Below are positions 3,803-42,928 of a DNA stretch of 42,928 nucleotides, one piece after another. Numbering within the stretch: position 1 is the first letter of the stretch; every line of letters starts with the position of its first letter. The stretch is from NCBI GenBank assembly GCA_012270045.1, contig JAAXJC010000008.1, forward strand, positions 2,162 through 45,089, in the 5' to 3' direction. A program made the position numbers and the translations under genes. The DNA comes from Luminiphilus sp. GTDB lineage: Bacteria > Pseudomonadota > Gammaproteobacteria > Pseudomonadales > Halieaceae. The notes beneath the pieces are model-generated. The model made no database searches, was not told the DNA's origin, and saw only the letters and a list, made by a program, of their open reading frames with translations.

Positions 3803-3803
3803 A

Positions 3804-4235: not shown

Positions 4236-4245
4236 GGCGATTTTC

Positions 4246-4273: not shown

Positions 4274-4304
4274 ACGCTGCTCGCTACTTCAGCGCATTCT
4301 TTTC

Positions 4305-4380: not shown

Positions 4381-4388
4381 TCTTCTCG

Positions 4389-18523: not shown

Positions 18524-18526
18524 ATA

Positions 18527-26620: not shown

Positions 26621-26658
26621 GCGGGTTGTAGGGCAGGTTGCGACTTGGGCAGCGTCCT

Positions 26659-29438: not shown

Positions 29439-30245
29439 ATGACCGCAACCCGTGCTACGCCCGTTTTGATCGACGAACAGGCAGACCTCATGACGATCAC
29501 ACTCAACCGCCCGGAGCTTGGCAACGCCTTTAGTGCGGACCTGGTCGATACCCTGTTTCACACGTTCACCGAGTTGGCATCCCGGGACGATATCCGGGTC
29601 GTGGTGCTGCAGGGCGCGGGCAAACATTTCTGCTCGGGCCTCGATCTGGTCGATGGTGGTTGGGGCTTCAGTGAGCGCTCGGTGGGCATGCTGCTGGGGG
29701 TGCAACGTCGCATTGCGCGGCTGTACCTGGCCATGCGCCGCTGCCCCCAGGCGGTAGTAGCCAGCGTTCAGGGTGCTGCCTATGGTGGAGGCCTGAGTCT
29801 CGCTGCCGCCGCTGATCTGCGGGTCGCTGACACCACAGCCAAATTCTGTGCTGCCTATATACGCATTGGTCTCACAGGTGCTGATATGGCCAGCAGTTAC
29901 CTGTTACCGCGCCTGGTGGGGGGTTCTTTTGCGGCTGAAATGATGATGACAGGGCGGGCCTATACCGCCGAAGCCATGGACAAACGGGGCTTCCTGTCCC
30001 ACGTCACTGCGCCGGAGGAGAGGGAGTCGGCGGTGTCGGCCCTGGTGGCTGATTTGTTGGCGACCGCGCCCCTGGGTCTGCGCCTGACCAAGGAGGCGGT
30101 ACACCTGGGTATCGATTCCCAATCCATGGAAGCAACCATGGCCCTGGAGGACCGGCACCAGACCTTGCTGTCGATGACCGATGACGCCGCTGAAGCAATG
30201 CATGCATTCCAGGAGAAGCGCGCTCCGAATTACCGGGGTCGATGA
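29439..30245 (+). CDS. Enoyl-CoA hydratase/isomerase (crotonase family)
   Basis: The protein has 268 residues with the crotonase fold. NRPELGNAFSADLVDTL leads to the first oxyanion segment KHFCSGLDL, and the second is QGAAYGGGLSLAAAADLRVA. GLTGADMASSYLLPRLVGG follows where one catalytic acidic residue is normally found. It probably hydrates or isomerises an enoyl-CoA in acyl-CoA breakdown; the exact substrate is open. ATG 29439 follows a GGTGA-like ribosome site. It is 190 bases from the preceding gene and converges on the MeaB gene, so it is not in the mutase operon but could serve the same pathway. Confidence 0.88.
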   Translation: MTATRATPVLIDEQADLMTITLNRPELGNAFSADLVDTLFHTFTELASRDDIRVVVLQGAGKHFCSGLDLVDGGWGFSERSVGMLLGVQRRIARLYLAMRRCPQAVVASVQGAAYGGGLSLAAAADLRVADTTAKFCAAYIRIGLTGADMASSYLLPRLVGGSFAAEMMMTGRAYTAEAMDKRGFLSHVTAPEERESAVSALVADLLATAPLGLRLTKEAVHLGIDSQSMEATMALEDRHQTLLSMTDDAAEAMHAFQEKRAPNYRGR

Positions 30246-30362: not shown

Positions 30363-31277
30363 TCAGGAACGCTGTTGATAAAATTGGGCCAGCAGATCTG
30401 TGGCGGTCCCCGGCGATTTTTCCTGGGTGGCCTCGCCTCCCCCGCAATTAAGAAAGGTCTCGAAGTCACTGAGTAGCTGAGCTCTGGCTGCTTCCCGGGC
30501 AGCCAGTATCCGGCGTTTTTTGCTGCTCTCTGTTGGGGAGTCCGCCAGCAGCTGCGCCAGGTCATGCCACAATTCTGTAACCCCATCGCCATCCGTAGCG
30601 ATGGTTGGAAACACGCTCGGCGGCCTTTCCACAGGCAAACACTGCAGGGACTGCTCCAGCAGTATTTTCGCCTGCTCCAGGCCCGGACGATCTGCCTTAT
30701 TGAGTGCGAAGGCATCCCCCTGCTCGGTGAGACCCGCTTTATTTGCTTGAAAACCATCGCCCCATCCAGGATTCAGGACGACCAGTACGCGGTCTGCCAG
30801 ATCAACGATATCGAGTTCAACCTGGCCAATGCCCAACGTCTCAATGATGATCAGGGGCCACTGGTCGGCATCGAGCAGATTGATAGTGGCTCGGGTGGCG
30901 GCGGCAATGCCCCCCTGGTGTCCCCGGGAGGCCATAGACCTGAAGAAGACCCTGTTGCCAAAGTGCCGGTAGTCAATACGAACCCGGTCTCCCAGCAGCG
31001 CACCTCCGGTTACTGCGGAACTCGGGTCCACTGCGAGTACTGCCACAGAGGAATATCGCTGCAATGCCAGGGGCAGCAAAGCGCTGACCAATGAGGATTT
31101 TCCTGCCCCGGGTGGACCGGTTATGCCCAGGACATGGGCGTTGGCAGGTGTGGCCAGTGCAGCCTCCTCCAGGGTGAGTGCTTGGTTGCCTCCTGATTCA
31201 ATCGACGTAATGGCCCGTGCCAGAGCTTTACGCTGCTCAAAGTCAACCGGTGCCGCAGCATCTGCCGCATTGCTCAT
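30363..31277 (-). CDS. meaB: MeaB-type GTPase, chaperone of the B12-dependent mutase
   Basis: This 304-residue G protein of the MeaB/ArgK family has the P-loop GPPGAGKSSLVSAL, VLAVDPSSAVTGGALLGDRV with the family's switch region, ETLGIGQVELDIVDLAD and the base-specificity motif NKAD. MeaB loads and protects adenosylcobalamin-dependent acyl-CoA mutases. The ATG overlaps the TGA of the small mutase subunit (31274-31277), so it is translationally coupled to it. Pairing of a MeaB with its own mutase is common, so this one probably serves the unusual mutase next to it. The assignment is firm. Confidence 0.94.
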   Translation of the reverse strand: MSNAADAAAPVDFEQRKALARAITSIESGGNQALTLEEAALATPANAHVLGITGPPGAGKSSLVSALLPLALQRYSSVAVLAVDPSSAVTGGALLGDRVRIDYRHFGNRVFFRSMASRGHQGGIAAATRATINLLDADQWPLIIIETLGIGQVELDIVDLADRVLVVLNPGWGDGFQANKAGLTEQGDAFALNKADRPGLEQAKILLEQSLQCLPVERPPSVFPTIATDGDGVTELWHDLAQLLADSPTESSKKRRILAAREAARAQLLSDFETFLNCGGGEATQEKSPGTATDLLAQFYQQRS

Positions 31278-31663
31278 TGCTGGCTGCTAAGCCCCGTGAG
31301 GCGATTTGCCGAAGCCACGATGTCGGTCAATGCTGAGCCCGGTGGAAAAACCTCCAATCCTTTCGCTTCCAATTGCTTGCAGGCATGTGGCGGGATCGTG
31401 CCGCCAGCGAAGAGCGGCATATCGGGACATGTGGACTGGACCGCGTCGACTGCCCGCAGCGCCACATCAATATGGCCACCTATATTAAGCCCTACCAAAT
31501 CAACATCTTCATCCACAGCGGCGGCAACGATTTCGTTTGTCGTGGCCATGCCGATCATAATGACTTCGAAGCCTGCGTCCCGGAGTGCCCGCGCAACAAT
31601 GGTGGGGCCGCGCCAGTGCCCATCAAGTCCGGTTTTTGCCATCAGGATACGTTTTGGCCTCAT
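31274..31663 (-). CDS. Acyl-CoA mutase small subunit, adenosylcobalamin-binding
   Basis: This 129-residue B12-binding domain has the DGHWRG form of DxHxxG at residues 14-19, His16 being the lower cobalt ligand. GLNIGGHIDVAL and FAGGTIPPHAC match the other cobalamin-contact loops. A separate small subunit of this length is the arrangement of isobutyryl-CoA and 2-hydroxyisobutyryl-CoA mutases (IcmB/HcmB), whereas classical methylmalonyl-CoA mutase carries the domain fused at its C-terminus. GAGGAA stands upstream of the ATG. It lies 12 bases downstream of the large subunit and overlaps meaB. Confidence 0.93.
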   Translation of the reverse strand: MRPKRILMAKTGLDGHWRGPTIVARALRDAGFEVIMIGMATTNEIVAAAVDEDVDLVGLNIGGHIDVALRAVDAVQSTCPDMPLFAGGTIPPHACKQLEAKGLEVFPPGSALTDIVASANRLTGLSSQQ

Positions 31664-31675
31664 TGGCGTTTCCTC

Positions 31676-33307
31676 TCAACTTTGGATGGGGGTGCGCCAG
31701 TCACCGAAAACCTCGCGGTAAACGTCGCCCACCTCGCCCAGCGTGGCTTCTCGCTCGAGGCAGTCCATCATCGCGGGCATAATATTTTCCGTTCCCCGGC
31801 AGACCTGTTCCAGGCGCCGGAGGGCATCCGCTGCCCCCCGCTCATGACGACTGCGTTTCACCTCTTTAAGCCGGTCCAGGGCAACATCAAAGGCGTCGTC
31901 GCTGCCTATGAAGCCATCAATTTCGAAGGGGCTGCAGTCATCATGGGCCATCGTCACTCCGACAATATGCGCATCGCCACTTTCGGTTTGCATGAATTCT
32001 GCGTGTTGGTTCTCCTCCGCCTTGGCATGTAACCAGCCCGAATCGAGGCAGGCCAGGTAGCCACCCCGGCTTTGGATGTCCTCAAAGAAGGCCCAGGCTT
32101 TTTCGACCAGCTGCGCGGTCAACGTCTCGACGTAGTAGGAGCCTCCCAGCGGGTCGGTAACATCGGTCAGACCCGTTTCCTCCATCAGGATCTGCTGAAT
32201 TCTCACCGACATTTGATGGGCATGTTCCGAGGGTATGGACAGCGCTTCGTCATAACCCGATACCCCCAATGATTGCACGCCACCCAATACGGCGCTGACT
32301 GCCATCAGTGCACCCCGGACCAAATTGTTCATGGGCTGCTGGTAGGCCATTTTGGAGCCAGCGGTAACGCAGTGGATTCGCAGGTTGGCCACTCTGGGGT
32401 CGGTAATGCCATAGCGTTGTCGCAACAGATCGGACCACATCAGTCGCGCGGCTCGCATCTTGCAGGCCTCTTCAAAAATTTTGATGGACGCGCGGAAGCT
32501 GACCCCCGCACAACCCCGGGCTGCAATCTCCAACGAAATCCGGTCCCGTTTCGCAATCTCATCAAGGTATTCCACGGCATTGGCAAACAGGCTGCCCAGC
32601 TCCTGATCAGGGGTCAGTCCGGTGTCCGCGCCGTTGTAACCCGCGATGGATACCGGAACCCAGCGGGGAAGATGTTCGGTACAGAATTCAATGATATCCG
32701 CGTTGAAGCGCAGGCCGGCATCGGTGGGTATCTGCTGCTTTGTCACGCAACCCAAATAGGTGAGGTTGAAGTCGCTTTGACCTGTGCCGGCCAGCCTCTG
32801 CAGGTCATAGCCGCGCTGTTTTGCCACGGTCCAATAGGCTGCCAGTGCGAACGGCGCGTGCTGAACGACGGCGCCTCCCGCGTGTCCGAAGCTGGTATCC
32901 ATGGGCAGGCCGTCAAGGCAGATAGCGGTGTCCCTGACGCTCTGCATGACGGCACCGGTCAGGCCAACGTCTTCCCGTCGCGCCAAGACTTCGGGGTGGT
33001 CTACGTTATAGCAATGGTCCGCCGTGTTTCGATCATGCTCCATGATGAAGCCGGTTTCGCCATTTTTGAGCAAAAACTTGATCCGCTCATTTTCATCCTC
33101 TGGCTTGCCAAAGCCGCTGAGTTGAAATATGCGCCAGGGCTTTGATCGGTAGCCCGAGGGGTGAAAGCCTCGGTGATAGGGTGCCTCCCCCGGCGGTTGG
33201 TTGACGCGCGCCGCGTGCCCGTCGGGGATGTCGTCAGCAGTGTAGTAGGGCTTGAGCGGGATATCCGAACAGGCCCGGGCAGTGTCGCCGGAACCTTTTG
33301 CCTGCAT
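31676..33307 (-). CDS. Acyl-CoA mutase large subunit, divergent active site
   Basis: This 543-residue protein has the TIM-barrel layout of adenosylcobalamin-dependent acyl-CoA mutases: HPSGYRSKPWRIFQLSGFG (with Tyr53 at the place of Tyr89), RLAGTGQSDF (Thr and Gln at 195 and 197), PVSIAGYNGADTG, EEACKMRAARLMWSDLL, GVSGYDEALSIPSE and DPLGGSYYVE. Numbers are of the Propionibacterium methylmalonyl-CoA mutase, aligned from memory. The Arg207 that binds the methylmalonyl carboxylate is Cys187 or Val188 here, and catalytic His244 is Asn225. The FDLPT and SMTMN motifs are also replaced (EHDRNT, GGAVVQH). It therefore probably rearranges a different acyl-CoA. It forms an operon with the small subunit and meaB. 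Confidence 0.88.
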   Translation of the reverse strand: MQAKGSGDTARACSDIPLKPYYTADDIPDGHAARVNQPPGEAPYHRGFHPSGYRSKPWRIFQLSGFGKPEDENERIKFLLKNGETGFIMEHDRNTADHCYNVDHPEVLARREDVGLTGAVMQSVRDTAICLDGLPMDTSFGHAGGAVVQHAPFALAAYWTVAKQRGYDLQRLAGTGQSDFNLTYLGCVTKQQIPTDAGLRFNADIIEFCTEHLPRWVPVSIAGYNGADTGLTPDQELGSLFANAVEYLDEIAKRDRISLEIAARGCAGVSFRASIKIFEEACKMRAARLMWSDLLRQRYGITDPRVANLRIHCVTAGSKMAYQQPMNNLVRGALMAVSAVLGGVQSLGVSGYDEALSIPSEHAHQMSVRIQQILMEETGLTDVTDPLGGSYYVETLTAQLVEKAWAFFEDIQSRGGYLACLDSGWLHAKAEENQHAEFMQTESGDAHIVGVTMAHDDCSPFEIDGFIGSDDAFDVALDRLKEVKRSRHERGAADALRRLEQVCRGTENIMPAMMDCLEREATLGEVGDVYREVFGDWRTPIQS

Positions 33308-33418
33308 GCGCTGGAACCTCGCACTCGTTATTTTTGCTACAGACTACTACATCTTTACTTTGCAGTAAGCTATTGCTACGTTGAGTACAACAAAGATAAC
33401 AACAGACTGGGGCGAATA
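33308..33418. promoter_or_regulatory. Divergent promoter region with candidate TetR operator
   Basis: This 111-base AT-richer stretch separates the mutase operon from the seven-gene plus-strand operon and must carry both promoters. TTACT (33355-33359) and AGTAA (33364-33368) form an inverted repeat with a 4-base spacer; a second partial repeat is GTTG...CAAC at 33380-33391. Either could be a site for the TetR-type regulator encoded two genes downstream. Promoter hexamers are not clear, and the region is too short for a full cobalamin riboswitch. Confidence 0.35.
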
Positions 33419-34597
33419 GTGTTTGGATATGACGCGTCGACACTCGGACTAACGGCGACCGAAAGGGTTCACATGGGCCGCGCCGCCGCGGACGCCCTGG
33501 CAGAAGAGGCAGAGAGCCTGGACGCCGAACGGATTTTTCTGCTGGTCAGCAGCACCCTTCGTAACAACACAGATGAAATCGCTCGAATTGAGTCTGCATT
33601 GGGGTCCCGATTGGCGATGACCTATGACGGCATTGCTCCCCATGCACCTCGTACAGACGTGCTGAAGGCCATGGTGGCGGCCCGGGACGTCAACACTGAC
33701 CTCATCATTACTGTTGGTGGGGGTTCGGTTACGGATGCGGGTAAGGTTATTGCGCTGGGACTGAAGCACAACATGCTCAGCCATGAAGATTTTGAGGGTT
33801 TCTATGTCTACGTCGATGACGATGGCAATACAGTCGCTCCGGTCTTTGATGGCCCCGACATTCGCGTCATCTGCTGCCCTACGACCTTGTCGGGGGGCGA
33901 GTTCAACACCATGGGGGGCGTCACTGACGATCGGGAAAATAAAAAGCAGGGCTATACCCATCGATTAATGGCGCCGGTGGCTATTGTGCTCGATCCTGCA
34001 CTGACCGTGCACACCCCGGAATGGCTGTGGCACTCCACTGGTGTTCGTGCAGTCGATCACGCGCTTGAATCGCTCTCTTCCAGGCACTCGAGTTATTTCT
34101 GCGATGGTGTGGCAGAGAGTGCCCTGCGATTGTTGAGTCAAGCCATGCCAGCGGTAAAGGCCGACCCCGGAGATCTTGATGCCCGGCTCAAATGCCAGGT
34201 TGGCGCCTGGCAGTCGATGATTCCAATCATTGGTGGCGTACCTATGGGCGCCAGTCATGCCATCGGTCATGTGTTGGGAGGGACAGCCGACGTGCCCCAT
34301 GGTTACTGTTCCTGTGTGATGGCTCCCGCCGTGCTCGCATTCAACAAGCCGGTTACCGGTGACAAGCAGGTCAAGATCAGTGACAGTTTCGGGCGACCCG
34401 GTGAGGACGCCAGTATTGTCCTGGATGAGTTCATACGTGGTCTGGGCATGCCTCGCACCCTCGGCGAAGTGGGTGTCACTGACGAGCAGCTGGATTTGAT
34501 AGCGGAGTACACCATGTTGGACTTCTGGTCCCGAACAAACCCCAGGGAGATTACTGGCCCAGGTGATGTGCGGGCGATTCTTGAGCAGGCCCGCTAA
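33419..34597 (+). CDS. Iron-type alcohol dehydrogenase, maleylacetate-reductase-like
   Basis: This protein of about 392 residues belongs to the Fe-dependent (group III) alcohol dehydrogenases. ITVGGGSVTDAGKVIALGLK is the nucleotide-binding GGGSxxD motif, CCPTTLSGGEFN follows, and metal ligands lie in RAVDHALES, GASHAIGHVLGG and DVPHG. The GxSHAxxHVLGGT...PHG form is that of maleylacetate reductases, but other carbonyl or alcohol substrates are possible. The frame opens at 33161 within the opposite mutase gene; GTG 33419, preceded by GGGGC, starts just at the conserved FG segment and is preferred, though not certain. It is first in the plus-strand operon; tetR follows after 3 bases. Confidence 0.85.
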   Translation: MFGYDASTLGLTATERVHMGRAAADALAEEAESLDAERIFLLVSSTLRNNTDEIARIESALGSRLAMTYDGIAPHAPRTDVLKAMVAARDVNTDLIITVGGGSVTDAGKVIALGLKHNMLSHEDFEGFYVYVDDDGNTVAPVFDGPDIRVICCPTTLSGGEFNTMGGVTDDRENKKQGYTHRLMAPVAIVLDPALTVHTPEWLWHSTGVRAVDHALESLSSRHSSYFCDGVAESALRLLSQAMPAVKADPGDLDARLKCQVGAWQSMIPIIGGVPMGASHAIGHVLGGTADVPHGYCSCVMAPAVLAFNKPVTGDKQVKISDSFGRPGEDASIVLDEFIRGLGMPRTLGEVGVTDEQLDLIAEYTMLDFWSRTNPREITGPGDVRAILEQAR

Positions 34598-34600
34598 CCG

Positions 34601-35251
34601 ATGTCCGTTGCTTTGACACTGCCTCAGTCCAGTCTGAAGCACGAGGTCACCGACTTTAAGCGCCGACGGATACGTGAAGAGGCCAGCCATCTTTTTTTTC
34701 AGCTTGGATATGAAGGGACTACCCTTGATGCCATCGCCCAGCGCCTTGAGGTCACCAAGCCCTTTCTGTACACCCATTACGCCAATAAAACAGAATTGCT
34801 TTACGACATTTGCCAGACAGGGATTCTCCAGTCCCTCAACGCCATCCAGAGAGTCATGGACAGTCCATTGGATTCGGCGACCGAACGGCTCAGTCGGCTG
34901 GTGGAAGAAGTGCTTGACATCATTTTTGAATTTCAGGAATTCATCGTGGTGTATGAGCGAGAGGAAAAAAATCTGACGGCAAACCAAGCCAGGGAAATTC
35001 GCGAGCACCGCAGCCTGTTCGACCATAAGTTAGCTGAAATACTTGAGCAGGGGCGGGAGGCGGGAGAATTTCTTATCTGTGACGGGGTTCTCACGGCCAA
35101 CACCATCGGCGGCATGATGACCTGGGTGGCCCTGTGGTACCGACCTGAAGGCAAGCAAACGCGCCACCAGATTATCAGCCACACGCTGCGGATGGTGAAC
35201 TCAGTGGTCGGGTTGGGGCCCAAATATGCTGCGGATAAGGCCGCCCAATGA
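34601..35251 (+). CDS. TetR-family transcriptional regulator
   Basis: This 216-residue regulator has the TetR helix-turn-helix at about residues 19-65: RIREEASHLFFQLGYEGTTL, then DAIAQRLEVTKPFLYTHYANKTEL, the YxHYxNK end being typical. The C-terminal ligand domain is unassigned. It is embedded in the operon between the alcohol dehydrogenase (3 bases upstream) and the acyl-CoA ligase (25 bases downstream). It probably controls the divergent promoter region at 33308-33418 in response to a pathway intermediate such as an acyl-CoA, as many TetR repressors of CoA pathways do; this is inference from position. Confidence 0.92.
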   Translation: MSVALTLPQSSLKHEVTDFKRRRIREEASHLFFQLGYEGTTLDAIAQRLEVTKPFLYTHYANKTELLYDICQTGILQSLNAIQRVMDSPLDSATERLSRLVEEVLDIIFEFQEFIVVYEREEKNLTANQAREIREHRSLFDHKLAEILEQGREAGEFLICDGVLTANTIGGMMTWVALWYRPEGKQTRHQIISHTLRMVNSVVGLGPKYAADKAAQ

Positions 35252-35276
35252 AGCCAAAAAGCCTGGGGATAAAGCG

Positions 35277-36899
35277 ATGACGATGCAGACCTCAACTTGT
35301 GACCCGCGGATACCCGATCGTGATCGTTGTGTCACCCGTTATTTGCTGGAGCGGTGGGCGACCGAAAAACCAGAACAAGTCTTCGCCATCTTCCAGGACG
35401 GCGAGGAGTGGTCCTACGGTGACCTGCTGGTCCGCGTCCGCCAACTGGCAGGTGGCTTTGCCGGATCCGGTGTTGGGCGCGGTGATCACGTCGCGGTTTG
35501 GATGTTTGATGGCAAGGAAGCGATCCTGACGTTCTTTGCCCTGAACTATCTGGGCGCTGTATTCGTGCCGCTGAATACGGCATTTAAAGGCAAGGTCCTG
35601 GAACACACCCTGAATCTTTCTGATGCCCGAATTTTAGTGGCCCATGACCAGCTGTTGGACCGACTCGCTGATGTTGACTGCCCCAGAATCAGCGACGTCA
35701 TCACGCTGGGCCCAGGAGAAGCGCCTCAGGGTTATACAACAATACCGTGGTCGGTTATTGACCAGGCAACGACACCGCCGCCGGAGCTGACAAGCCCTAT
35801 TGAGCCCTGGGATACCCAATCCATTATCTTTACTTCGGGAACCACTGGACCCTCAAAAGGGGTGCTGTCGTCCTACCTACATATATTCACCAATGCGGGT
35901 CCGGAAACCTGGCCCTTTGTGACCGGTGAGGACCGTTTCCTGATCAACATGCCTATTTTTCACATCGGTGGCATGGGGGTCATTTTTGTGATGTTGGCCA
36001 GAGGCGGATCGATTGCAGTAACCGAAGGTTTCTCTACGGATACCTTCTGGCCCTTTGTCCGCTCCTCCCAGACCACCGTGGTATTCCTGCTGGGCGTTAT
36101 GGCGACCTTCCTGCTTAAGCAGCCGCCGTCGGACCAGGACCGGAATCATTCGGTTCGTCTGGTTTTTATGGTGCCGCTGACCGAGACCTGCACAGACTTC
36201 ACCCAGCGTTTTGGTTCGGACGTCTACACCATATTCAATATGACAGAAGTTAGTTCGCCTATTGTTTCAGAGCCTAACCCGACCAAGCGGGGCACCTGTG
36301 GTCGCAAACGCGAGGGCGTTGATGTGCGCCTGGTCGATGAGTTTGACTGCGAGGTGGCTGTGGGGGAGGTCGGCGAGATGATTGTTCGGACCGACCGTCC
36401 TTGGGGTATGAATTCGGGTTATTACAAACAGCCGGACGCCACCGCCGCGGCCTGGCGCAATGGTTGGTTTCATACCGGCGACTGTTTTCGCGTTGATGAA
36501 GATGGGTATTACTACTTTGTCGACAGGATGAAGGACGCGATCCGAAGACGTGGGGAGAACATTTCATCCTTTGAAGTTGAGGCGGAGGTCGTGGCCTACG
36601 ACGCGGTTCGAGAGGCTGCAGCCTACGCCGTTCCCAGTGATGTCGGTGAGGATGAGGTCATGATCGCCGTGGCGGCAGTTGATGGGCAGGAGATAGATCC
36701 CGAGGCCCTGGTGCGCTTTCTCGGCGATAGGATGGCCCATTTTATGGTGCCTCGCTACGTGCGGACCCTGTCCGAACTGCCCAAAACGCCGTCATCCAAG
36801 GTGATGAAGCACGTTCTGCGCAACGAGGGCATTACTGCAGATACCTGGGATCGTACATCCGTGGGACTCCATTTCAAGCGCGAGACACTATCGGCCTGA
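35277..36899 (+). CDS. AMP-forming acyl-CoA ligase (CaiC-like branch)
   Basis: This 540-residue adenylate-forming enzyme has the P-loop FTSGTTGPSKGVLSS, the A5-like YTIFNMTEVSSPIV, GWFHTGDCFRVDEDGYYYFV with the ribose-binding Asp, RMKDAIRRRGENISSFEVE as the hinge region, and the C-terminal lysine segment LPKTPSSKVMKHVLR. Together these activate a carboxylic acid to its CoA thioester. Similarity to crotonobetaine/carnitine-CoA ligases is by overall pattern; the true acid is unknown. ATG 35277 follows a GGGGA site; an ATG at 35226 overlaps tetR. Position in the regulon suggests that it makes the acyl-CoA later handled by the mutase. Confidence 0.9.
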   Translation: MTMQTSTCDPRIPDRDRCVTRYLLERWATEKPEQVFAIFQDGEEWSYGDLLVRVRQLAGGFAGSGVGRGDHVAVWMFDGKEAILTFFALNYLGAVFVPLNTAFKGKVLEHTLNLSDARILVAHDQLLDRLADVDCPRISDVITLGPGEAPQGYTTIPWSVIDQATTPPPELTSPIEPWDTQSIIFTSGTTGPSKGVLSSYLHIFTNAGPETWPFVTGEDRFLINMPIFHIGGMGVIFVMLARGGSIAVTEGFSTDTFWPFVRSSQTTVVFLLGVMATFLLKQPPSDQDRNHSVRLVFMVPLTETCTDFTQRFGSDVYTIFNMTEVSSPIVSEPNPTKRGTCGRKREGVDVRLVDEFDCEVAVGEVGEMIVRTDRPWGMNSGYYKQPDATAAAWRNGWFHTGDCFRVDEDGYYYFVDRMKDAIRRRGENISSFEVEAEVVAYDAVREAAAYAVPSDVGEDEVMIAVAAVDGQEIDPEALVRFLGDRMAHFMVPRYVRTLSELPKTPSSKVMKHVLRNEGITADTWDRTSVGLHFKRETLSA

Positions 36900-36937
36900 C
36901 AGGGGCCAGAACTTTTAGCCGTAGAGGAGCAATAACA

Positions 36938-39133
36938 ATGAAGAAAGCTGGATATTTTCCAAAGGCTCTCATCTTGGGAGGAGCAACCGTCTTCGCCGGA
37001 CAAGTCCTGGCGCAACCCATGCTTGAAGAGGTGGTGGTTACGGCGTCCAAGAAAGATGTGTCGGTAACCGATCTGGCCGCCGCCGCGAACGTTATCGGTG
37101 CGGATGAGATTGTTCCCGGTGGTGTTCAGTCTGTACGAGACATGATTGTCGACGTACCCAATCTCTCAATCGGTGACCAATTCGGATTTGCCCGTGTGTT
37201 TATGCGCGGTATCGGTATGACCAGCATCGATATCGGGGGCGAGGGCGCGGTCGCTTTCCTGCAGGATGGCGCCATTATTCCTCGACCCGCGGCGCAGCTG
37301 ATGGGTATGTTTGATCTCGCCCAGGTGGAGGTGCTACGTGGGCCCCAGGGCACACTGTATGGACGCGGTGCTACGGCCGGTGTCATCAACATGGTGACGG
37401 CCAAGCCCAGCGGGGAGTTCGGTGGCTACCTGCGGGCAACCGCTGGGAACTACAGCATGCTCGATTTTGAGGGGGCCGTTGATGTGCCCCTGGGTGATGC
37501 CCTGGCTGCGAGGGTGGCCGGTAAATTTGAAAATCGTGATGGCTACGGAACCAATTTGTTTTCCGGCGAGGATGTTGATGACCGCGACGCTCAATCCTAT
37601 CGGGTGACCCTCGCCTATGACGGCGGAGGCTCATTCCGTGCCACAGGTTCTTATCAGCACTATCAGGAAGACGACCAAAACTTTGCTTTCCACTACTTTG
37701 GCCCCTCGGAGGGAAACCCACTGGGCCCATTAGCTGTGCCGATTTTCGGTGGACAGACGGTCTTTCAGGCCGGGGGCACCATTTACGACATCAACTCTGA
37801 TCAGGAAGCCATCAATACGCGTGACGGAGACAGCGCTATTGTCACCCTGGAATTTGATGTCGCTGAAAACCAGACCATAAAATCGCTGACCTCATTCCAG
37901 GAGTTGGATCGATTCCTGCGTGACGATCTGGATTCAACCGACGCCAATCTTTTTGGCCAAAACAATTATGTCGAGCAGAGTGAATCCTGGAGTCAGGAAT
38001 TCATTTACAACTTCTCTGGTGACAAGATCGATTTTCTCGCGGGTGCGATGTATTTCGAGGAGGACCTCTACGGTCAGGTTCTCGTTCCCCTGACCAATAT
38101 CTGTGCTCTTCTGGCTCCGGAGCTGTGCGGTACGCCCATCGGCGATGCGATCGGAGCGGGACGTTATGAACAAAACGGCGCGGTCGATATCGAGGCCTAC
38201 GGTATTTATGCTGAAGGTAGCTATCAGCTCACAGATACCCTGAAAATAATCGCCGGCATTCGTTACAACTACGAGGAGCGTACCGGTACCGGGGCTTTCA
38301 TCTTTGACGCCCTGCCGGTGGACGTGCCCACGGATCAAACAGCCGACTGGAGCGATGTAACGCCGCGGCTAACGGTGGAGTTTGAGCCCAATGACAACAT
38401 GCTGCTTTATGCCACCTACAACCAGGCATTCAAATCGGGCGTTATCAACACCGGTAGCCTGAGTCCGCCGCTGGAGCCTGAGACGGTTGATGCCTTTGAG
38501 GTGGGTATCAAGGGGTCATCGGCGGATGGTCGCTTGCGCTACGGTGTGTCCGGTTTCTACTACGACTACGCCGACCTCCAGATTTCCTTTGTCGATGCCA
38601 ACAGCACGGTCAGTACGATTAATGCTGCTGAGGCAGAGAATTACGGGATTGAAGTGGAACTTGATGCGGCCTTGTCCGACAACTTTACCCTCGACGTATA
38701 CGCAACCTACCTCAGTGCAGAGTATGAGGAGTTCTTTAATGGCGACTACTCCGATGGTTTCGCCATTAAGGACCTCAGCGGTAACACGTTGCCGAATGCT
38801 CCTGAATACACCTTCAAGCTCGGACTCAACTATCAGGCATCTATTATCGGTGGCGACCTGCTGCTCCGTGGGGAGTACTACTATCAGGATGATGTCTACT
38901 TTACAGAGTGGAACCGGCAGGATGCCTACCAGGAAGGCTATGGCTTGTTGAATGCCAGAGCTGTATACACACTTCCGGGCGAGCGGTGGAGTTTCGCTGT
39001 GTGGGGTCGAAATCTCGCTGATGAAGAAATTATTTCCAACAACATCATCACAGCCCCGCTGTACAACTCCCTTCGAGTGGGCTCGATGTTGCCGCCGCGC
39101 ACCTACGGAGCTACGGTGAGTTTCGACTTCTAG
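36938..39133 (+). CDS. TonB-dependent outer-membrane receptor
   Basis: The protein has 731 residues with a signal peptide (ending VLAQP) and a TonB box/plug start LEEVVVTASKKD. The plug domain contains VRDMIVDVPNLSIGDQFGFA and VEVLRGPQGTLYGRGATAGV then INMVTAKP. A 22-strand barrel ends in YGATVSFDF, with a terminal Phe for outer-membrane insertion. It belongs to the large group of receptors for catabolic substrates rather than to clear siderophore or B12 receptors. GAGGAG precedes the ATG. Its place between the acyl-CoA ligase and P450 suggests that it imports the compound the regulon degrades. It lies 38 bases after the ligase gene and 21 before the P450. Confidence 0.94.
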   Translation: MKKAGYFPKALILGGATVFAGQVLAQPMLEEVVVTASKKDVSVTDLAAAANVIGADEIVPGGVQSVRDMIVDVPNLSIGDQFGFARVFMRGIGMTSIDIGGEGAVAFLQDGAIIPRPAAQLMGMFDLAQVEVLRGPQGTLYGRGATAGVINMVTAKPSGEFGGYLRATAGNYSMLDFEGAVDVPLGDALAARVAGKFENRDGYGTNLFSGEDVDDRDAQSYRVTLAYDGGGSFRATGSYQHYQEDDQNFAFHYFGPSEGNPLGPLAVPIFGGQTVFQAGGTIYDINSDQEAINTRDGDSAIVTLEFDVAENQTIKSLTSFQELDRFLRDDLDSTDANLFGQNNYVEQSESWSQEFIYNFSGDKIDFLAGAMYFEEDLYGQVLVPLTNICALLAPELCGTPIGDAIGAGRYEQNGAVDIEAYGIYAEGSYQLTDTLKIIAGIRYNYEERTGTGAFIFDALPVDVPTDQTADWSDVTPRLTVEFEPNDNMLLYATYNQAFKSGVINTGSLSPPLEPETVDAFEVGIKGSSADGRLRYGVSGFYYDYADLQISFVDANSTVSTINAAEAENYGIEVELDAALSDNFTLDVYATYLSAEYEEFFNGDYSDGFAIKDLSGNTLPNAPEYTFKLGLNYQASIIGGDLLLRGEYYYQDDVYFTEWNRQDAYQEGYGLLNARAVYTLPGERWSFAVWGRNLADEEIISNNIITAPLYNSLRVGSMLPPRTYGATVSFDF

Positions 39134-39154
39134 GCCTGTCCTGGCTGGTCCCAG

Positions 39155-40384
39155 GTGAGTCCTGCATTCTCCTTCAATCCCATGGATCCGCAGCTTCTTG
39201 CGGATCCATACCCTATTTTTCGGTGGCTCAGGGAGGAGGATCCCATTCACCGTTCAGAACTGGGTTTTTGGGTGATGACGCGGTACGACGACTGCCGTCA
39301 CGTGTTGATTGATAAGGCCTTTGGACAGGGTGACTTTGTAAAAAATATTCAGCTCTTTTATGACGACAGCTTCGATGTGCTCGCGAATCCCGCCTATGCC
39401 TGGCTGTCACGTGTCTTTGTCATGCAGGATCCTCCCACCCACACGCGATTGCGTGGGCTGGTGGCAAGCGCACTGTCTCTTAAGCGTATTCGAGCCATGG
39501 AGCCCAGGGTACGGGAGTTGGCCAGGGGTATGTTGGCCGATCTTGCGGGCCGGCCCGGTGCGAACTTTATTGAATCGTTTGCTTACCGGTTCCCGACTCT
39601 GGTTATGTGCGACATGTTGGGGCTGGAGGAGCATGAGTTTTCTGATGATTTACTGACCCAGTTGAATCAGGCGATTGCCGATACTTTTCCAGTCTTTGAA
39701 ACCCGCGCTTTGAACCCTGATGAACTCAGTCTTGCCAATCGCCAGATGGAGTTTCTGACCGCCTTTTTCCATGATTTGTTTGAGCGGCGACGGTCCCATC
39801 CCCGTGATGACCTCACTACAGCTCTGGTGCAGGCCAGAGAGGGCGACGCATCTCTATCAGCCGAGGAACTGAGCACGTCTGTGATCGGTTTGTTCGGCGC
39901 CGGATTCGAGACTACTGCCCACATGATTGGAAATGGCATGTATTTGCTGGGGGAGCACCCCCAGGAGCGCGCCAAGCTCACCAATAATCTGCAGCTGGCC
40001 AAGGCCGCGACCGAGGAGATTGTCCGGTACGAGTCTTCATTGCAGGCGACGTACAGAACGGCGTTGGCCGATACCGTGGTCGCCGGTCACGAATTTGCGG
40101 CGGGTGATCGTATTCTGACCATTGTTGCCGCAGCCAATCGAGATAAGGCGGTATTCACGCGTCCAGAAGCGTTCGTAGTAGATCCTCGTGAGGAAAAACC
40201 CCTGACCTTTGGTGGCGGCATCCATTACTGCGTGGGCGCTGAGCTGGCTCGATTGGAAGGGCGCGTTTTCCTGGAAGAACTGTTCACTGCATTTCCGAAT
40301 TTTCAGGTAGATACAGCCAACGCTCGTCTGCGCGAGGCCTTCCTGTTCCGGGGTTTTGAGCACTTGCCGGTCACTCTACAGTGA
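39155..40384 (+). CDS. Cytochrome P450 of the divergent regulon
   Basis: This soluble bacterial P450 has 409 residues. The heme loop FGGGIHYCVGAELARLE gives Cys359, the I-helix motif is LFGAGFETTAH, ExxR lies in EEIVRYES, and DPPTHTRLRGLVASAL is helix C. It differs clearly from the other P450 of the window, sharing only family motifs. It starts with GTG 39155, 21 bases after the receptor, and its stop overlaps the GTG of the flavin monooxygenase. A first hydroxylation of the imported substrate is the likely role. No ferredoxin or reductase is encoded nearby, so electrons must come from elsewhere. Confidence 0.93.
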   Translation: MSPAFSFNPMDPQLLADPYPIFRWLREEDPIHRSELGFWVMTRYDDCRHVLIDKAFGQGDFVKNIQLFYDDSFDVLANPAYAWLSRVFVMQDPPTHTRLRGLVASALSLKRIRAMEPRVRELARGMLADLAGRPGANFIESFAYRFPTLVMCDMLGLEEHEFSDDLLTQLNQAIADTFPVFETRALNPDELSLANRQMEFLTAFFHDLFERRRSHPRDDLTTALVQAREGDASLSAEELSTSVIGLFGAGFETTAHMIGNGMYLLGEHPQERAKLTNNLQLAKAATEEIVRYESSLQATYRTALADTVVAGHEFAAGDRILTIVAAANRDKAVFTRPEAFVVDPREEKPLTFGGGIHYCVGAELARLEGRVFLEELFTAFPNFQVDTANARLREAFLFRGFEHLPVTLQ

Positions 40385-41454
40385 GCGGCGACCCTATGCG
40401 CCGGCTTGCATTGGGCCTGTTTATGCCCAATTGCTCCAACATGCCCTCCATCTCTACCCATGATGTGGTGCCCGACCAGTGGACGTACAGTGAAAACGAG
40501 GCGCTGGCTCTGCGAGCAGAAGCACTGGGTTTTGAGTATCTCTTTCCCGTATCGCGTTGGCGAGGGTTCGGAGGCGAGACCAATTTCCTGGGGACATCCC
40601 TTGAGACCACTACCTGGGCTGCGGCCCTGCTCAGGGCGACTTCTCGAATCAATGTCTTTTCCACCGTCCATGTTCCGCTTTTCCATCCGTTCGTCGTGGC
40701 CAAGATGGGTGCGACCCTGGCACATCTGAGCGGGGGACGCTGGGGCCTGAACGTGGTCAGTGGTTGGAGCGCCCGGGAATTCGGCATGATGGGGATCGAA
40801 CTCGCGGAGCACCACAGCCGCTACGCCCGCACAGCTGCATTCATCAAAATACTGCGCGGTCTGTGGGATTCGGCGGCGCAGCCTTTTGACTTTCACAGCG
40901 AGTGGTACAGCGTGGTGGCGGGTGAAGCGTCCCCGGTGCCTGCTGTCCAGCCACCGGTAGCGAACGCGGGCACCTCTGAAGACGCCAAACAAATGACAGC
41001 CGAACTCTGCGACTGGGCTTTTATATCGACGCCTTCGGTCGCGGCTCTGGGGGCCATCACCGAAGATATTCGGGACCGTGCGGCGCGCAATAACCGAACC
41101 GTGCGCACGGCAATTTTCCCGTTTCTGTTGTGGGCAGACAGCCGCAGCGAAGCAGAAGAAAAACTTGCAGCCATCATTGAGGCCAAAGATGGCGTTGCCA
41201 CAGATAACTGGTTACACGACCTGACGGCGGGTAGCGGTTCCTTTGACGACTTCACTAAAGACATGCTGGCGGCCTCGGGGGGCGGTGTGCATATGGTGGG
41301 TACTGCCGATGATGTGACCGAGCAGTTGCTATCCGCCCACGATCAGGGAGCGGATGCCGTTATGCTGACGTTCCCGCGGTATCGTGAGGATCTGGAGCGT
41401 TTCGCCCTGGATATCCAGCCCAGGCTCCTGCAGGCGGGGGTTGTTGCCAGCTGA
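40381..41454 (+). CDS. LLM-class (luciferase-like) FMN-dependent monooxygenase, RutA-like
   Basis: This 357-residue TIM-barrel flavoprotein has GLFMPNC at the N-terminus, then FPVSRWRGFGGETNFLGTSL, TSRINVFSTVHVPLFHPFVV, LSGGRWGLNVVSGWSAREF and QPPVANAGTSEDAKQ. The RGFGGxTxF...LE and SGGRxGxNxVxGW patterns are those of RutA, which opens uracil, and of related enzymes that can use a flavin-N5 oxygen adduct. Diketocamphane-type Baeyer-Villiger monooxygenases are more distant members of the same fold. The real reaction is unknown: oxygen insertion next to a carbonyl or cleavage of an amide or heteroatom bond both fit. GTG 40381 overlaps the P450 stop; an ATG at 40396 is an alternative. Confidence 0.9.
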   Translation: MSGDPMRRLALGLFMPNCSNMPSISTHDVVPDQWTYSENEALALRAEALGFEYLFPVSRWRGFGGETNFLGTSLETTTWAAALLRATSRINVFSTVHVPLFHPFVVAKMGATLAHLSGGRWGLNVVSGWSAREFGMMGIELAEHHSRYARTAAFIKILRGLWDSAAQPFDFHSEWYSVVAGEASPVPAVQPPVANAGTSEDAKQMTAELCDWAFISTPSVAALGAITEDIRDRAARNNRTVRTAIFPFLLWADSRSEAEEKLAAIIEAKDGVATDNWLHDLTAGSGSFDDFTKDMLAASGGGVHMVGTADDVTEQLLSAHDQGADAVMLTFPRYREDLERFALDIQPRLLQAGVVAS

Positions 41455-41538
41455 ACCGAATTTAACAGTGGGCGACTGGGGTGATGTTGAAGTGGTTAGC
41501 TGCCTGGGTCTGCGGGTAACGGCAACGGCGGAGCTTTG

Positions 41539-42381
41539 ATGGCGCAGAATCCGGACATTATCTGTGATGGTTTCACCTTCATTGAAGGCCCCCGCTGGCA
41601 TCAGGGCGCACTCTGGTTTTCCGACTTTTATGATGAGGCGGTTTACCGGCTGCAACCGGGGGCGACAGCAGAGCGCATTGTCAGCGTGCCGCAGCGGCCG
41701 TCGGGACTGGGCTGGCTGCCGGCCGGCGAGTTGCTGGTCGCCTCCATGCTGGACAGGACGGTGTTCAGGTTGTCCGCCCAGGGCGACCTGGTTTGCCACG
41801 CCGATGTCTCCGGGGTTGCTGAACGTCGCATTAACGATATGTTGGTGGACCCCCTTGGCCGCGCCTGGGTGGGCAACTTTGGCTTTGATCTGCCCGCCGG
41901 GGAGTCCGTCACTCCCGGCACATTGGCCCGGGTAGACCCGGATGGTTCAGTGCACGCTGCGGCGGGCGACCTGCTGTTTGCCAACGGCATGGCACTGCTG
42001 GCAGATGCGGCCACGCTTGTGGTGGCGGAGACTTTCCGGGGCTGCCTGACCGCCTTTGATATCGGTAGCGATTCAGAACTGTACAACCGCAGGCCATGGG
42101 CCCAGTTGCCAGAGGGCGCGGTGCCTGACGGTATCTGTATCGATGCCGAAGGTGCGATCTGGGTGGCTTCACCGACCACAGGGACCGTGCTCCGGCTGGC
42201 TGAGGGGGGACGTGTGCTGGACACCATTGATACCGGCAGGCAGGCAATCGCCTGTGCCCTCGGCGGTGCTGATGGACAGACGCTGTTTGTCAGCACGGCG
42301 GTCGCTACCGACCGTGATACCTGTCTTAAAGCCCGCTCCGCCCGGGTTGAGGCCTATGCTGTGCCGGTCCCCATGCCCTGA
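41539..42381 (+). CDS. SMP-30/gluconolactonase-family hydrolase
   Basis: This six-bladed beta-propeller of 280 residues keeps the metal-binding residues of the SMP-30/gluconolactonase family: Glu in FIEGPRWHQG, Asn in RRINDMLVDPLGRAWVGN, Asn in FANGMALL and Asp in VPDGICIDAEGAIWVASP. Such enzymes hydrolyse lactones or similar esters with a divalent metal. GGAG stands 6 bases before ATG 41539. It is 84 bases after the flavin monooxygenase and probably the last gene of the operon. It would suit opening of a lactone made by that monooxygenase, which is inference. No signal peptide is present. Confidence 0.9.
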   Translation: MAQNPDIICDGFTFIEGPRWHQGALWFSDFYDEAVYRLQPGATAERIVSVPQRPSGLGWLPAGELLVASMLDRTVFRLSAQGDLVCHADVSGVAERRINDMLVDPLGRAWVGNFGFDLPAGESVTPGTLARVDPDGSVHAAAGDLLFANGMALLADAATLVVAETFRGCLTAFDIGSDSELYNRRPWAQLPEGAVPDGICIDAEGAIWVASPTTGTVLRLAEGGRVLDTIDTGRQAIACALGGADGQTLFVSTAVATDRDTCLKARSARVEAYAVPVPMP

Positions 42382-42589
42382 TTTGTCCGAAGGGCGGTCT
42401 CCCTTCAACCTCCCGTTTCGGGTGCTACTTTGCGGGCGCACAGGACAAGGCCAACCCAGATGCCAGAGCAGTAGTCTAGGTCCCGCGGATCCCCGGACAG
42501 GCGCTGTTGCCATGAGTACCGGATACGGTGGCTGGTTATACTTCTCGCGCCATCCGTCACGCAAGGAATACCCAATCAAGGTCTGTCGT
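42382..42589. other. Convergent intergenic stretch with a hairpin
   Basis: These 208 bases lie between the lactonase and the convergent DUF1838-like gene. GAAGGG (42389-42394) and CCCTTC (42401-42406) form a 6-bp stem with a 6-base loop right after the lactonase stop, but no T run follows, so it is at most a weak terminator. Nothing else is recognised. Confidence 0.35.
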
Positions 42590-42928
42590 TCAGTGGCCTT
42601 GGTGTTTTTTCGCGGTACCGTCCTCTTTCATGGCTCTGCGATCCAACTCTTTTTTGAAGAAGGTCCAAGACGTCTCATTTGGTCTCTGATCATCCCCGGG
42701 GGGTGCATGTCGATATTTGGGGTAATTCGCAGCAATCTCAGACTTCAGTAAATCGGGCAGATCATCCCAGCTCTTTAGCTTGGTACCCTGCGCGTTGAAG
42801 TAGGTGATGCCATCACGTCCGCCCATTTCCATCCTAGGAAGCCACTGAACAATTCGAACCCATGAGATGCCAGGGTTAATCGAAGTCAGTTGATCATCGA
42901 GTAAAGAGTCCGCCATACCGTAGTAATT
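42590..42928 (-). CDS. DUF1838-like protein, C-terminal part (start beyond the window)
   Basis: The minus-strand frame is open from the right edge (codons reading NYYG before an internal Met at 42916) to a stop at 42590. About 112 residues are visible: NPGISWVRIVQWLPRMEMGG, then RDGITYFNAQGTKLKSWDDLP and, nearer the end, NETSWTFFKKELDRR. The W.P.M.MG.R.G..Y..GTK.....LP...NETSW pattern recalls the C-terminus of the DUF1838 family, whose function is unknown. Members occur in catabolic regions of TonB-receptor-rich bacteria, as recalled from family knowledge. The Met at 42916 has no good ribosome site, supporting the view that the gene starts further right. It converges on the lactonase gene. 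Confidence 0.6.
   Translation of the reverse strand, partial: NYYGMADSLLDDQLTSINPGISWVRIVQWLPRMEMGGRDGITYFNAQGTKLKSWDDLPDLLKSEIAANYPKYRHAPPGDDQRPNETSWTFFKKELDRRAMKEDGTAKKHQGH

What the first reader, a model, noticed from the sequence alone, without database searches (positions are those of the whole stretch)
30363..42928. Divergent regulon for catabolism of an unknown, possibly quaternary-carbon compound
Two operons diverge from 33308-33418: mutase large and small subunits and meaB to the left; Fe-ADH, TetR, acyl-CoA ligase, TonB receptor, P450, RutA-like monooxygenase and SMP-30 lactonase to the right, nearly all with gaps under 40 bases or overlaps. The set parallels camphor breakdown: P450 hydroxylation, alcohol oxidation, flavin-dependent lactone formation, lactone opening, CoA ligation. 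The mutase could then rearrange a branched or gem-dimethyl carbon that blocks beta-oxidation. I know of no described pathway with this exact set. The substrate class is inference.
Basis: partly seen in the sequence, partly recalled or inferred. Interest (0 to 1): 0.8.

Follow-up and report, generated by a model that had tools for sequence, protein, structure and literature searches.

The report
Catabolic regulon around unusual B12 mutase
A marine bacterium carries a conserved two-way gene cluster built around a previously unrecognised kind of vitamin-B12 enzyme that probably reshapes the carbon skeleton of an unknown natural compound so that it can be burned as food.

Summary
In detail: ten genes lie where stated, diverging from 33308-33418, longest gap 81 bases; the window ends at its contig's end. 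Mutase, B12 subunit, MeaB, Fe-ADH, TetR and acyl-CoA ligase form the conserved unit, mostly with the TonB receptor and an enoyl-CoA hydratase; P450, flavin monooxygenase and lactonase are accessories. In 293 sampled genomes of the order, mutase and Fe-ADH orthologues occur in the same 7. The mutase groups with none of the methylmalonyl-, 2-hydroxyisobutyryl- or (presumed) pivalyl-CoA mutases compared. It belongs to a discrete clade (support 100/100, long stem) in Halieaceae, other Proteobacteria and Acidimicrobiia. Its active site is rebuilt: the catalytic His is Asn in 91 of 91 rows, and the substrate Arg/Gln is lost beside an invariant Cys. Residue 90, aligned with Asp117 of 2-hydroxyisobutyryl-CoA mutase, is Glu in most rows and Lys in one clade, five of whose loci carry sulfoacetaldehyde acetyltransferase. 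Best explanation: the ligase makes an alpha-branched acyl-CoA that the mutase rearranges for beta-oxidation. The substrate is unknown; the camphor parallel is weak because the oxygenases are not core.

The parts
29439..30245 (+). enoyl-CoA hydratase/isomerase family protein, convergent to the mutase operon here; 47-50% relatives lie downstream of the mutase genes in other lineages
   Evidence: Pfam ECH_1; tblastn relatives in G140, G113, G008, G221 and in 24 of 36 gammaproteobacterial loci
30363..31277 (-). MeaB-type GTPase, chaperone that loads B12 into the mutase (inferred role)
   Evidence: PF03308 3.5e-62; TIGR00750 223 bits, cut-off 241; in 34 of 36 loci
31274..31663 (-). mutase small subunit, B12-binding, with DGHWRG (DxHxxG) motif
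   Evidence: PF02310, TIGR00640 over cut-off; KT[GSA]LDGHWRG in 69 of 69 small subunits extracted
31676..33307 (-). mutase large subunit of a separate AdoCbl-mutase clade: F61, L63, E90, H91, H142, C187, N225, R272
   Evidence: PF01642, TIGR00641 over cut-off; signature columns; tree; AlphaFold model nearest to 4r3u
33308..33418 (.). divergent promoter region shared by both operons
   Evidence: sequence; same head-to-head layout in 41 of the 73 loci
33355..33368 (.). inverted repeat TTACT-N4-AGTAA, candidate TetR operator
   Evidence: only exact site of this kind in the 42.9-kb window; exact kind (either order of half-sites, spacer 2-9) in 8 of 42 intergenic regions against mean 0.2 (max 2) in Markov-resampled sequences; motif chosen after looking
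33419..34597 (+). iron-type alcohol dehydrogenase family protein, with maleylacetate reductases among its nearest solved relatives
   Evidence: PF00465/PF25137; PDB 3jzd, 9ph0 (MAR1), 3w5s, 3hl0; NCBIfam equivalogs all far under cut-off; orthologue in the same 7 of 293 genomes as the mutase
34601..35251 (+). TetR regulator with TetR_C_24 domain
   Evidence: PDB relatives include KstR2 4w97, 1.6e-11, behind several others; 35 of 36 loci
35277..36899 (+). acyl-CoA ligase (AMP-binding)
   Evidence: PF00501; nearest NCBIfam PRK06155, under its cut-off; 35 of 36 loci
36938..39133 (+). TonB-dependent outer-membrane receptor
   Evidence: PF00593 and PF07715; 29 of 36 loci
39155..40384 (+). cytochrome P450 (accessory)
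   Evidence: PF00067; heme motif FGGGIHYCVG in the translation; 20 of 36 loci
40396..41454 (+). luciferase-like flavin monooxygenase, SfnG/RutA-like (accessory)
   Evidence: PF00296, TIGR04021 199 bits under cut-off; PDB 8t0u 4e-42; 19 of 36 loci; at E 1e-60 only the own genome among 293 of the order
41536..42381 (+). SMP-30/gluconolactonase-like protein (accessory, in the closest relatives only; TTG start uncertain)
   Evidence: PF08450; 3 of 36 loci

Best explanation
The cluster is a TetR-controlled catabolic regulon whose heart is a new clade of adenosylcobalamin-dependent acyl-CoA mutase. A compound is brought in (TonB receptor, inferred) and trimmed to a carboxylic acid by lineage-specific enzymes: P450 and flavin monooxygenase here, hydrolases, dehydrogenases or amidases elsewhere (inferred). 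The acyl-CoA ligase makes a CoA thioester (inferred from family). The MeaB-served mutase moves the thioester group between neighbouring carbons and so turns an alpha-branched acyl-CoA, most likely one with a polar group on the branched carbon as in 2-hydroxyisobutyryl-CoA, into a straighter one that beta-oxidation enzymes (hydratase; elsewhere SDR, acyl-CoA dehydrogenase, FadB, thiolase) can finish. Shown: gene content, conserved linkage, phylogenetic co-occurrence, separateness of the mutase clade and its invariant active-site replacements. Inferred: activity, direction, substrate.
For: Mutase and Fe-ADH orthologues in the same 7 of 293 genomes, adjacent in all 7. In 36 gammaproteobacterial loci: small subunit 36, Fe-ADH 36, TetR 35, ligase 35, MeaB 34, receptor 29, hydratase 24. 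A ligase of other types lies near the mutase in 22 of 25 actinobacterial loci compared. Beta-oxidation families recur in the stretches around it: SDR in 26 of 73 loci, acyl-CoA dehydrogenase 19, thiolase 11, FadB-like 9 (clusters, representatives named; no control set was run). Clade support 100/100 on a stem of 2.29. With the clade's alignment and a limit of 1e-130, no sampled genome has a match weaker than 1e-261. Residues 63, 90, 188 and 225 align with HcmA Ile90, Asp117, Gln208 and His245. DxHxxG kept in 69 of 69 small subunits. Nearest solved relative by sequence and fold is 4r3u, 2-hydroxyisobutyryl-CoA mutase.
Against: No biochemistry. The residues that make known members work are replaced (HcmA Arg88 by Phe, His245 by Asn, Gln332 by Val or Leu), so an ordinary HCM-like reaction cannot be assumed. 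The tree does not show 2-hydroxyisobutyryl-CoA mutase as sister group, and it warns of long branches. In the 13 actinobacterial or unplaced loci no Fe-ADH, TetR, ligase or receptor of the window's type was found at my thresholds; in 24 other proteobacterial loci Fe-ADH is absent from 10 (truncated contigs not corrected for). None of the ten genes of the cluster is an aldehyde dehydrogenase. The AlphaFold model has pLDDT under 50 at residues 45-65 and 346-368, which hold part of the pocket.
Confidence: 0.6

Rival explanations
1. One reading: a camphor-like pathway for a terpenoid or steroid-like compound with a gem-dimethyl carbon, the mutase acting as a pivalyl-CoA-type mutase (2,2-dimethylacyl-CoA to 3-methylacyl-CoA).
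For: P450, alcohol dehydrogenase, LLM, lactonase and ligase stand together in the window. P450 and an LLM also lie near the mutase in an Acidimicrobiia group, L145-L147. The clade has Leu at the position of HcmA Ile90, as has Xaut_5043, which I recall as the pivalyl-CoA mutase. A TonB receptor in a divergent P450 cluster is involved in oestrogen uptake in Novosphingobium (PMC7793797, passages seen).
Against: P450 in 20, LLM in 19, SMP-30 in 3 of 36 loci, so the core can occur without them. Residue 90 is always charged (Glu 79, Lys 12 of 91 rows), odd for an all-hydrocarbon branch. No carboxylase for a 3-methylacyl-CoA product is among the families I identified; I did not search for one.
Confidence: 0.2
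2. It is an ordinary 2-hydroxyisobutyryl-CoA mutase operon for C4 tertiary acids (MTBE, tert-butanol, acetone type metabolism).
For: Best PDB and fold match is 4r3u. Mutase, small subunit, MeaB-like GTPase and CoA ligase also stand together in the PM1 and Py2 hcm clusters. Leu63/Glu90 replace Ile90/Asp117 conservatively.
Against: 32% identity to 4r3u; outside the HCM group in the tree; Arg88, Ser115, Gln208, His245, Gln332 and Asn368 of HcmA all differ in the window. None of the ten genes is an adenosyltransferase, which both hcm clusters have. A TonB receptor is not needed for a C4 acid (general knowledge).
Confidence: 0.08
3. The mutase side and the oxygenase side are separate functions that share a promoter region by accident; the receptor takes up B12 or iron chelates.
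For: The LLM is found in 1 of 293 order genomes, the core in 7. The receptor's best NCBIfam score is the TonB-siderophore subfamily, 175 bits, cut-off 223.5.
Against: Fe-ADH, TetR and ligase (right operon) accompany the mutase (left operon) in 35-36 of 36 loci. In L081- and L083-type loci the same genes stay together in other orders. No cobalamin riboswitch over threshold in the window.
Confidence: 0.1
4. The mutase is a non-catalytic or regulatory B12 protein (for example a cobalamin sensor or a decayed paralogue).
For: The usual catalytic His and substrate Arg/Gln are gone in all rows examined.
Against: Five of the replacing residues (F61, L63, C187, N225, R272) are themselves invariant in 91 of 91 rows; the small subunit keeps DxHxxG and MeaB is mostly retained; the gene sits with ligases and beta-oxidation families.
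Confidence: 0.05

Closest known systems
2-Hydroxyisobutyryl-CoA mutase (HcmAB; PDB 4r3u; Methylibium petroleiphilum PM1, Xanthobacter autotrophicus Py2 Xaut_5018-5021)
   Same: Closest solved relative; separate large and small subunits; CoA ligase and MeaB-type GTPase in the same cluster
   Different: 32% identity, separate clade; Arg88-Phe, Ile90-Leu, Asp117-Glu/Lys, Gln208 lost beside an inserted Cys, His245-Asn, Gln332-Val/Leu; regulon also has Fe-ADH, TetR and TonB receptor
Xaut_5043/5044 mutase of X. autotrophicus Py2 (recalled as pivalyl-CoA mutase)
   Same: Two-subunit mutase with a MeaB-type GTPase and a TetR gene alongside; Leu at the Ile90 position
   Different: Keeps Arg85, His242 and Gln329; Leu-Pro instead of Glu-His; own long branch outside the clade
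Methylmalonyl-CoA mutase
   Same: Pfam PF01642 fold and MeaB partner; the own genome has a separate strong match to the family at G000:C149
   Different: 34% identity; has Arg, Tyr, Arg, His and Gln (87, 89, 207, 244, 330 in P. shermanii numbering, recalled) where the window has Phe, Leu, Val next to Cys, Asn and Val
Oestrogen edc cluster of Novosphingobium tardaugens (PMC7793797, passages seen)
   Same: Two divergent operons, P450 and a TonB receptor involved in uptake of a hydrophobic substrate
   Different: No mutase of this kind mentioned in the passages seen; the paper's one mention of a methylmalonyl-CoA mutase concerns the general lower pathway
Camphor degradation pathway (recalled)
   Same: P450, alcohol dehydrogenase, luciferase-like Baeyer-Villiger type enzyme and CoA ligase are the same enzyme kinds
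   Different: No mutase there as far as I recall; here the oxygenases are accessory and the LLM is SfnG/RutA-like

Membership tests
2-hydroxyisobutyryl-CoA mutase | Specificity residues Ile90 (or Val) and Asp117 (HcmA numbering, role recalled) | tested here: not met
   Window L63 and E90 align with I90 and D117; L in 91 of 91, E in 79 and K in 12 of 91 rows
2-hydroxyisobutyryl-CoA mutase | Gln208 and His245 (role recalled) | tested here: not met
   V188 (varies in the clade) beside an inserted C187, and N225; C and N in 91 of 91
2-hydroxyisobutyryl-CoA mutase | Groups with HcmA in a tree | tested here: not met
   The two HcmA rows, K101 and two gammaproteobacterial rows form a 100/99 group on the other side of the clade's 100/100 stem
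2-hydroxyisobutyryl-CoA mutase | Converts 2-hydroxyisobutyryl-CoA to 3-hydroxybutyryl-CoA | not testable with these tools
   needs enzyme assay
Methylmalonyl-CoA mutase | Tyr89, Arg207, His244 (P. shermanii numbering, recalled) | tested here: not met
   Own-genome MCM has Y, R and H in these columns, the window L, V (next to C) and N
Pivalyl-CoA mutase (Xaut_5043 as recalled reference) | Groups with the reference and shares its pocket residues | tested here: not met
   Of the replaced pocket columns only the Leu is shared; Xaut5043 lies outside the clade, on a long branch whose place is unsure
AdoCbl acyl-CoA mutase superfamily | TIM-barrel-type large subunit, B12 subunit with DxHxxG, MeaB partner | tested here: met
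   TIGR00641 and TIGR00640 over cut-off; motif in 69 of 69; fold match to 4r3u, TM 0.84 by query; MeaB in 34 of 36
AdoCbl acyl-CoA mutase superfamily | AdoCbl-dependent radical rearrangement of an acyl-CoA | not testable with these tools
   needs enzyme assay
Camphor-type pathway | Hydroxylase, dehydrogenase, Baeyer-Villiger enzyme and lactone opening as obligate consecutive steps (recalled) | tested here: not met
   P450 20, LLM 19, SMP-30 3 of 36 loci that keep the core
Coordinately regulated divergent regulon | Shared operator and co-induction | tested here: inconclusive
   Candidate palindrome in the shared promoter region; no expression data

The most novel reading that the evidence does not exclude
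The clade is a mechanistically distinct class of B12 radical mutase that works without the His general acid. Its residue 90 (Glu or Lys, on the site that holds the hydroxyl in 2-hydroxyisobutyryl-CoA mutase) sets the charge of the group carried by the rearranged carbon: hydroxyl or amine for the Glu form, sulfonate or another anion for the Lys form. The Lys form that in Acidimicrobiia is encoded with sulfoacetaldehyde acetyltransferase and a class III aminotransferase would be the first B12 mutase of organosulfonate breakdown. Amidase, AstE-like and LLM genes near both forms, in three lineages, would mean that the acids come from amide-linked natural products.
Probability: 0.15. Interest if true: 0.85.

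Novelty: new variant of a known kind. Interest (0 to 1): 0.62.

Why it matters
Few natural reactions are known for AdoCbl acyl-CoA mutases, and known ones are told apart by a few pocket residues (recalled). This clade differs from the 20 reference rows compared in nearly all of those columns, yet is strictly conserved inside, spans two phyla and lies in a tidy cluster with a ligase that should reveal the substrate. It makes a concrete question testable in strains whose records carry the core (Pseudohaliea rubra L066, Haliea alexandrii L071, Kineobactrum sediminis L068, NOR5-3 L063): which branched compound do coastal OM60/NOR5 bacteria spend B12 on? A new mutase specificity would also interest people who engineer carbon-skeleton rearrangements.

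Tried and rejected
Cobalamin riboswitch or other RNA in the window: at Rfam's gathering scores only the tRNA. Steroid CD-ring (HIP) pathway: the TetR is distantly KstR2-like, and one locus, L111, has a CoA-transferase-like gene whose PDB matches are glutaconate CoA-transferase (1.7e-13), a glutaconate CoA-transferase family subunit and two 'probable CoA-transferase alpha subunits', and by eye an NPD-like gene; not taken further. Close plasmid-borne relatives: none over 60% identity in 418 plasmid records, best rows about 35%. Reading pocket geometry from the AlphaFold model: given up, since residues 45-65 and 346-368 have pLDDT under 50. A unifying substrate from neighbours: not found; SDR, acyl-CoA dehydrogenase, metallo-hydrolase, amidase, AstE, LLM, PQQ dehydrogenase and Xsc occur in different lineages. 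The amidase/AstE/LLM module does not sort with residue 90: it is near Glu forms (L096-L098, L145-L147) and Lys forms (L105, L156). Pantothenate and mycosporine ideas were thought of and dropped for lack of evidence. Literature: ten searches in the held open-access library listed no paper that by title or abstract start deals with this clade or cluster; passages were seen of three papers only (PMC11599936, PMC7793797, PMC9974510). Most subscription journals are not held, and two papers on the 2-hydroxyisobutyryl-CoA and pivalyl-CoA mutases that I asked for are not held; statements on them are recalled.


Full report
Observation. The two operons diverge from 33308-33418. Spacings are an overlap of 4 and a gap of 12 on the left, then 3, 25, 38, 21, 11 and 81 on the right, with the starts given under parts. 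The right operon may continue, since the window's last base is the end of its contig. The monooxygenase scores better with SfnG than with RutA, but under both cut-offs.

Conservation of the core. With the mutase as query, 7 of 293 sampled genomes of the order, the own one included, hold an orthologue of 75% identity or more; the next best is 36%. With the Fe-ADH as query the same 7 hold an orthologue of 62% or more, each beside the mutase; the next best is 40%. Four of the seven are in one genus-level group (g15), so they are not seven independent cases; they fall in three family-level groups (f1, f4, f9). A scan of the collection of 84,980 species genomes with an alignment of seven, through two short peptide patterns, gave 73 named loci; members without either pattern would be missed. 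I sorted the 73 by identity and record title into 36 gammaproteobacterial loci (73% or more to the window), 24 other Proteobacteria and 13 Actinomycetota or unplaced. In the 36: small subunit 36, Fe-ADH 36, TetR 35, ligase 35, MeaB 34, TonB receptor 29, enoyl-CoA hydratase 24, P450 20, LLM 19, SMP-30 3. Some absences are contig ends (for instance L053, L062, L074); I did not correct for that. In the 24: small subunit 22, ligase 15, Fe-ADH 14, MeaB 14, TetR 13, hydratase 12, receptor 11, P450 3, LLM 0, SMP-30 0. In the 13: small subunit 11, MeaB 3, none of the others at these thresholds. In the actinobacterial set a ligase of another type is near the mutase in 22 of 25 loci compared: 46-90% alike to that of L145 in one group, 34-35% in the loci with Xsc. 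So oxygenases and lactonase are additions in some lineages, and the mutase-ligase pairing is the most widespread part.

The mutase. Its best solved relative is 2-hydroxyisobutyryl-CoA mutase 4r3u by sequence and by fold (TM 0.84, 32% identity). A maximum-likelihood tree of 45 sequences puts 25 clade members on one side of a branch of length 2.29 with 100/100 support; two HCMs and their kin, a haloarchaeal mutase, streptomycete mutases, ordinary methylmalonyl-CoA mutases and Xaut_5043 are on the other. The program warns of long branches, Xaut_5043 above all. With the clade's alignment, 15 of 296 genomes of the class of Acidithrix and 3 of 289 of an alphaproteobacterial class have members (the centre genomes counted), all at 1e-261 or better, with nothing between that and the limit of 1e-130 (only the best 4-5 candidates per genome were scored). 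Other mutases of the same genomes begin at 1e-120. This is a discrete family in the samples taken.

Active site. In the 70 large subunits examined first (window plus 69 of 73 loci; four truncated ones, L104, L110, L112, L114, were left out) F61, L63, H91, C187, N225 and R272 are invariant and E90 is in 69. The 20 reference rows have Arg at column 61, Tyr/Phe/Ile/Val/Leu at 63, Ala/Asp/Leu at 90, Phe/Leu/Pro at 91, a gap at 187, His at 225 and never Arg at 272. In HcmA numbering L63, E90, V188 and N225 align with Ile90, Asp117, Gln208 and His245, the inserted C187 stands beside the third, and V314 aligns with Gln332; 188 varies in the clade. That Ile90 and Asp117 set HCM specificity, and that MCM uses Tyr89, Arg207 and His244, I recall; PDB titles of H244A and Y89F mutants show that two of these have been studied. 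DxHxxG is kept in 69 of 69 small subunits. The AlphaFold model (23 sequences, mean pLDDT 76) is poor at 45-65 and 346-368, so no pocket geometry is claimed.

Context elsewhere. By single-linkage clusters of open frames in the 73 loci, an SDR is in 26, an acyl-CoA dehydrogenase in 19, a metallo-beta-lactamase-fold hydrolase in 17, a thiolase in 11 and a FadB-like gene in 9 (representatives named by Pfam). A stricter tblastn over 91 loci gave SDR 22, acyl-CoA dehydrogenase 22, hydrolase 17, thiolase 11, FadB-like 6. These are common families and I ran no control set. One locus has a PQQ alcohol dehydrogenase behind the ligase. In the actinobacterial set there are two settings of the Glu90 form: with ligase, P450, LLM and AstE/AspA-like genes (L145-L147), or with a nitroreductase or a sugar-type ABC transporter or both. 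The Lys90 form makes one clade (support 87/94). Five of its loci (L148, L150, L151, L152, L154) have mutL-mutS followed by sulfoacetaldehyde acetyltransferase, a class III aminotransferase, a ligase and an LLM; the family test was made on L150 only (TIGR03457, 791 bits, cut-off 676; LLM TIGR03619, 229 bits, cut-off 167), the other four being 93-98% identical in Xsc. No other of the 91 loci searched shows Xsc in the stretch held. Three genomes (G538, G554, G565) hold both forms. The five are closely related, so this is one association, not five. An LLM of a second type with an amidase also stands near the mutase in Halieaceae locus L048 and Steroidobacteraceae locus L114, as in Acidimicrobiia; this module is near both Glu and Lys forms, and L114's mutase is cut before residue 90.

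Regulation. The TetR has the TetR_C_24 domain and distant likeness to KstR2 among others. A perfect repeat TTACT-N4-AGTAA lies at 33355-33368, the only such site in the window. Exact sites of this kind, in either order of half-sites, occur in 8 of 42 head-to-head regions against 0.2 expected, and with one mismatch in 32 against 4.4. I chose the motif after looking at these sequences, and the loci are related, so the numbers overstate it. No cobalamin riboswitch reached its threshold.

How it works. Shown: gene content, linkage, co-occurrence, a separate mutase clade with invariant replacements. Following from families: the ligase makes a CoA ester, MeaB serves the mutase, the B12 subunit binds the cofactor, hydratase and other beta-oxidation genes finish the product. 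Inferred: the acyl group is alpha-branched and bears a polar substituent, because residue 90 sits where HCM holds the hydroxyl (recalled) and is charged throughout, and because the pocket has lost the carboxylate-binding Arg. The upstream chemistry varies by lineage, so the mutase's substrate is probably a fragment that several compounds yield. The camphor analogy is possible for the window's own lineage but cannot describe the family.

What is known. Ten literature searches in the held library listed nothing on this clade or cluster. The nearest transport and layout precedent is the divergent oestrogen cluster with the TonB receptor EdcT (PMC7793797, passages seen). By the membership tests it is a member of the AdoCbl acyl-CoA mutase superfamily and of none of the named subfamilies tested.

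Noticed in passing
window 27575-29248(+): Class IV aminotransferase followed by a sulfotransferase-like gene (by eye), directly before the enoyl-CoA hydratase; this trio is kept next to the regulon in three close relatives (L042, L045, L047). Function unknown.
   Followed up: partly
window 15900-19888(+): A second oxygenase group: an ATP-grasp-like gene, a second P450 (17225-18523) and a Rieske oxygenase-like gene (18527-19888), read by eye from the translations; 38-40% relatives of this second P450 lie on the mutase loci L091 and L092.
   Followed up: no
window 24571-27390(-): Kynureninase-like, alpha/beta hydrolase and HD-domain-like genes (by eye), kept beside the regulon in L042 and L045.
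   Followed up: no
L114:2620-5728: Between amidase and TonB receptor in a Steroidobacteraceae record lie genes that by eye look like FbiC (F420 core synthesis) and CofC; F420 genes in a proteobacterium beside an LLM would be unusual.
   Followed up: no
L155:13760-19716: Genes that by eye look like cobalamin biosynthesis (CobS, CobD, CobC and others) follow the mutase operon of a Lys90 form.
   Followed up: no
L092:4802-5986 and 3495-4700: A PaaA/PaaC-like oxygenase component and an LLM stand near the mutase in an alphaproteobacterial record.
   Followed up: no
L065 and L077: Record titles name Klebsiella pneumoniae and Janthinobacterium lividum for metagenome bins; the loci resemble the freshwater proteobacterial ones, so the titles are probably mislabelled.
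   Followed up: no
L117:3410-8958 (Sinorhizobium sp. K101 plasmid): HCM-like operon (59% to HcmA): small subunit, MeaB, mutase, enoyl-CoA hydratase, AMP-binding protein; Val and Asp at the HCM specificity sites.
   Followed up: partly
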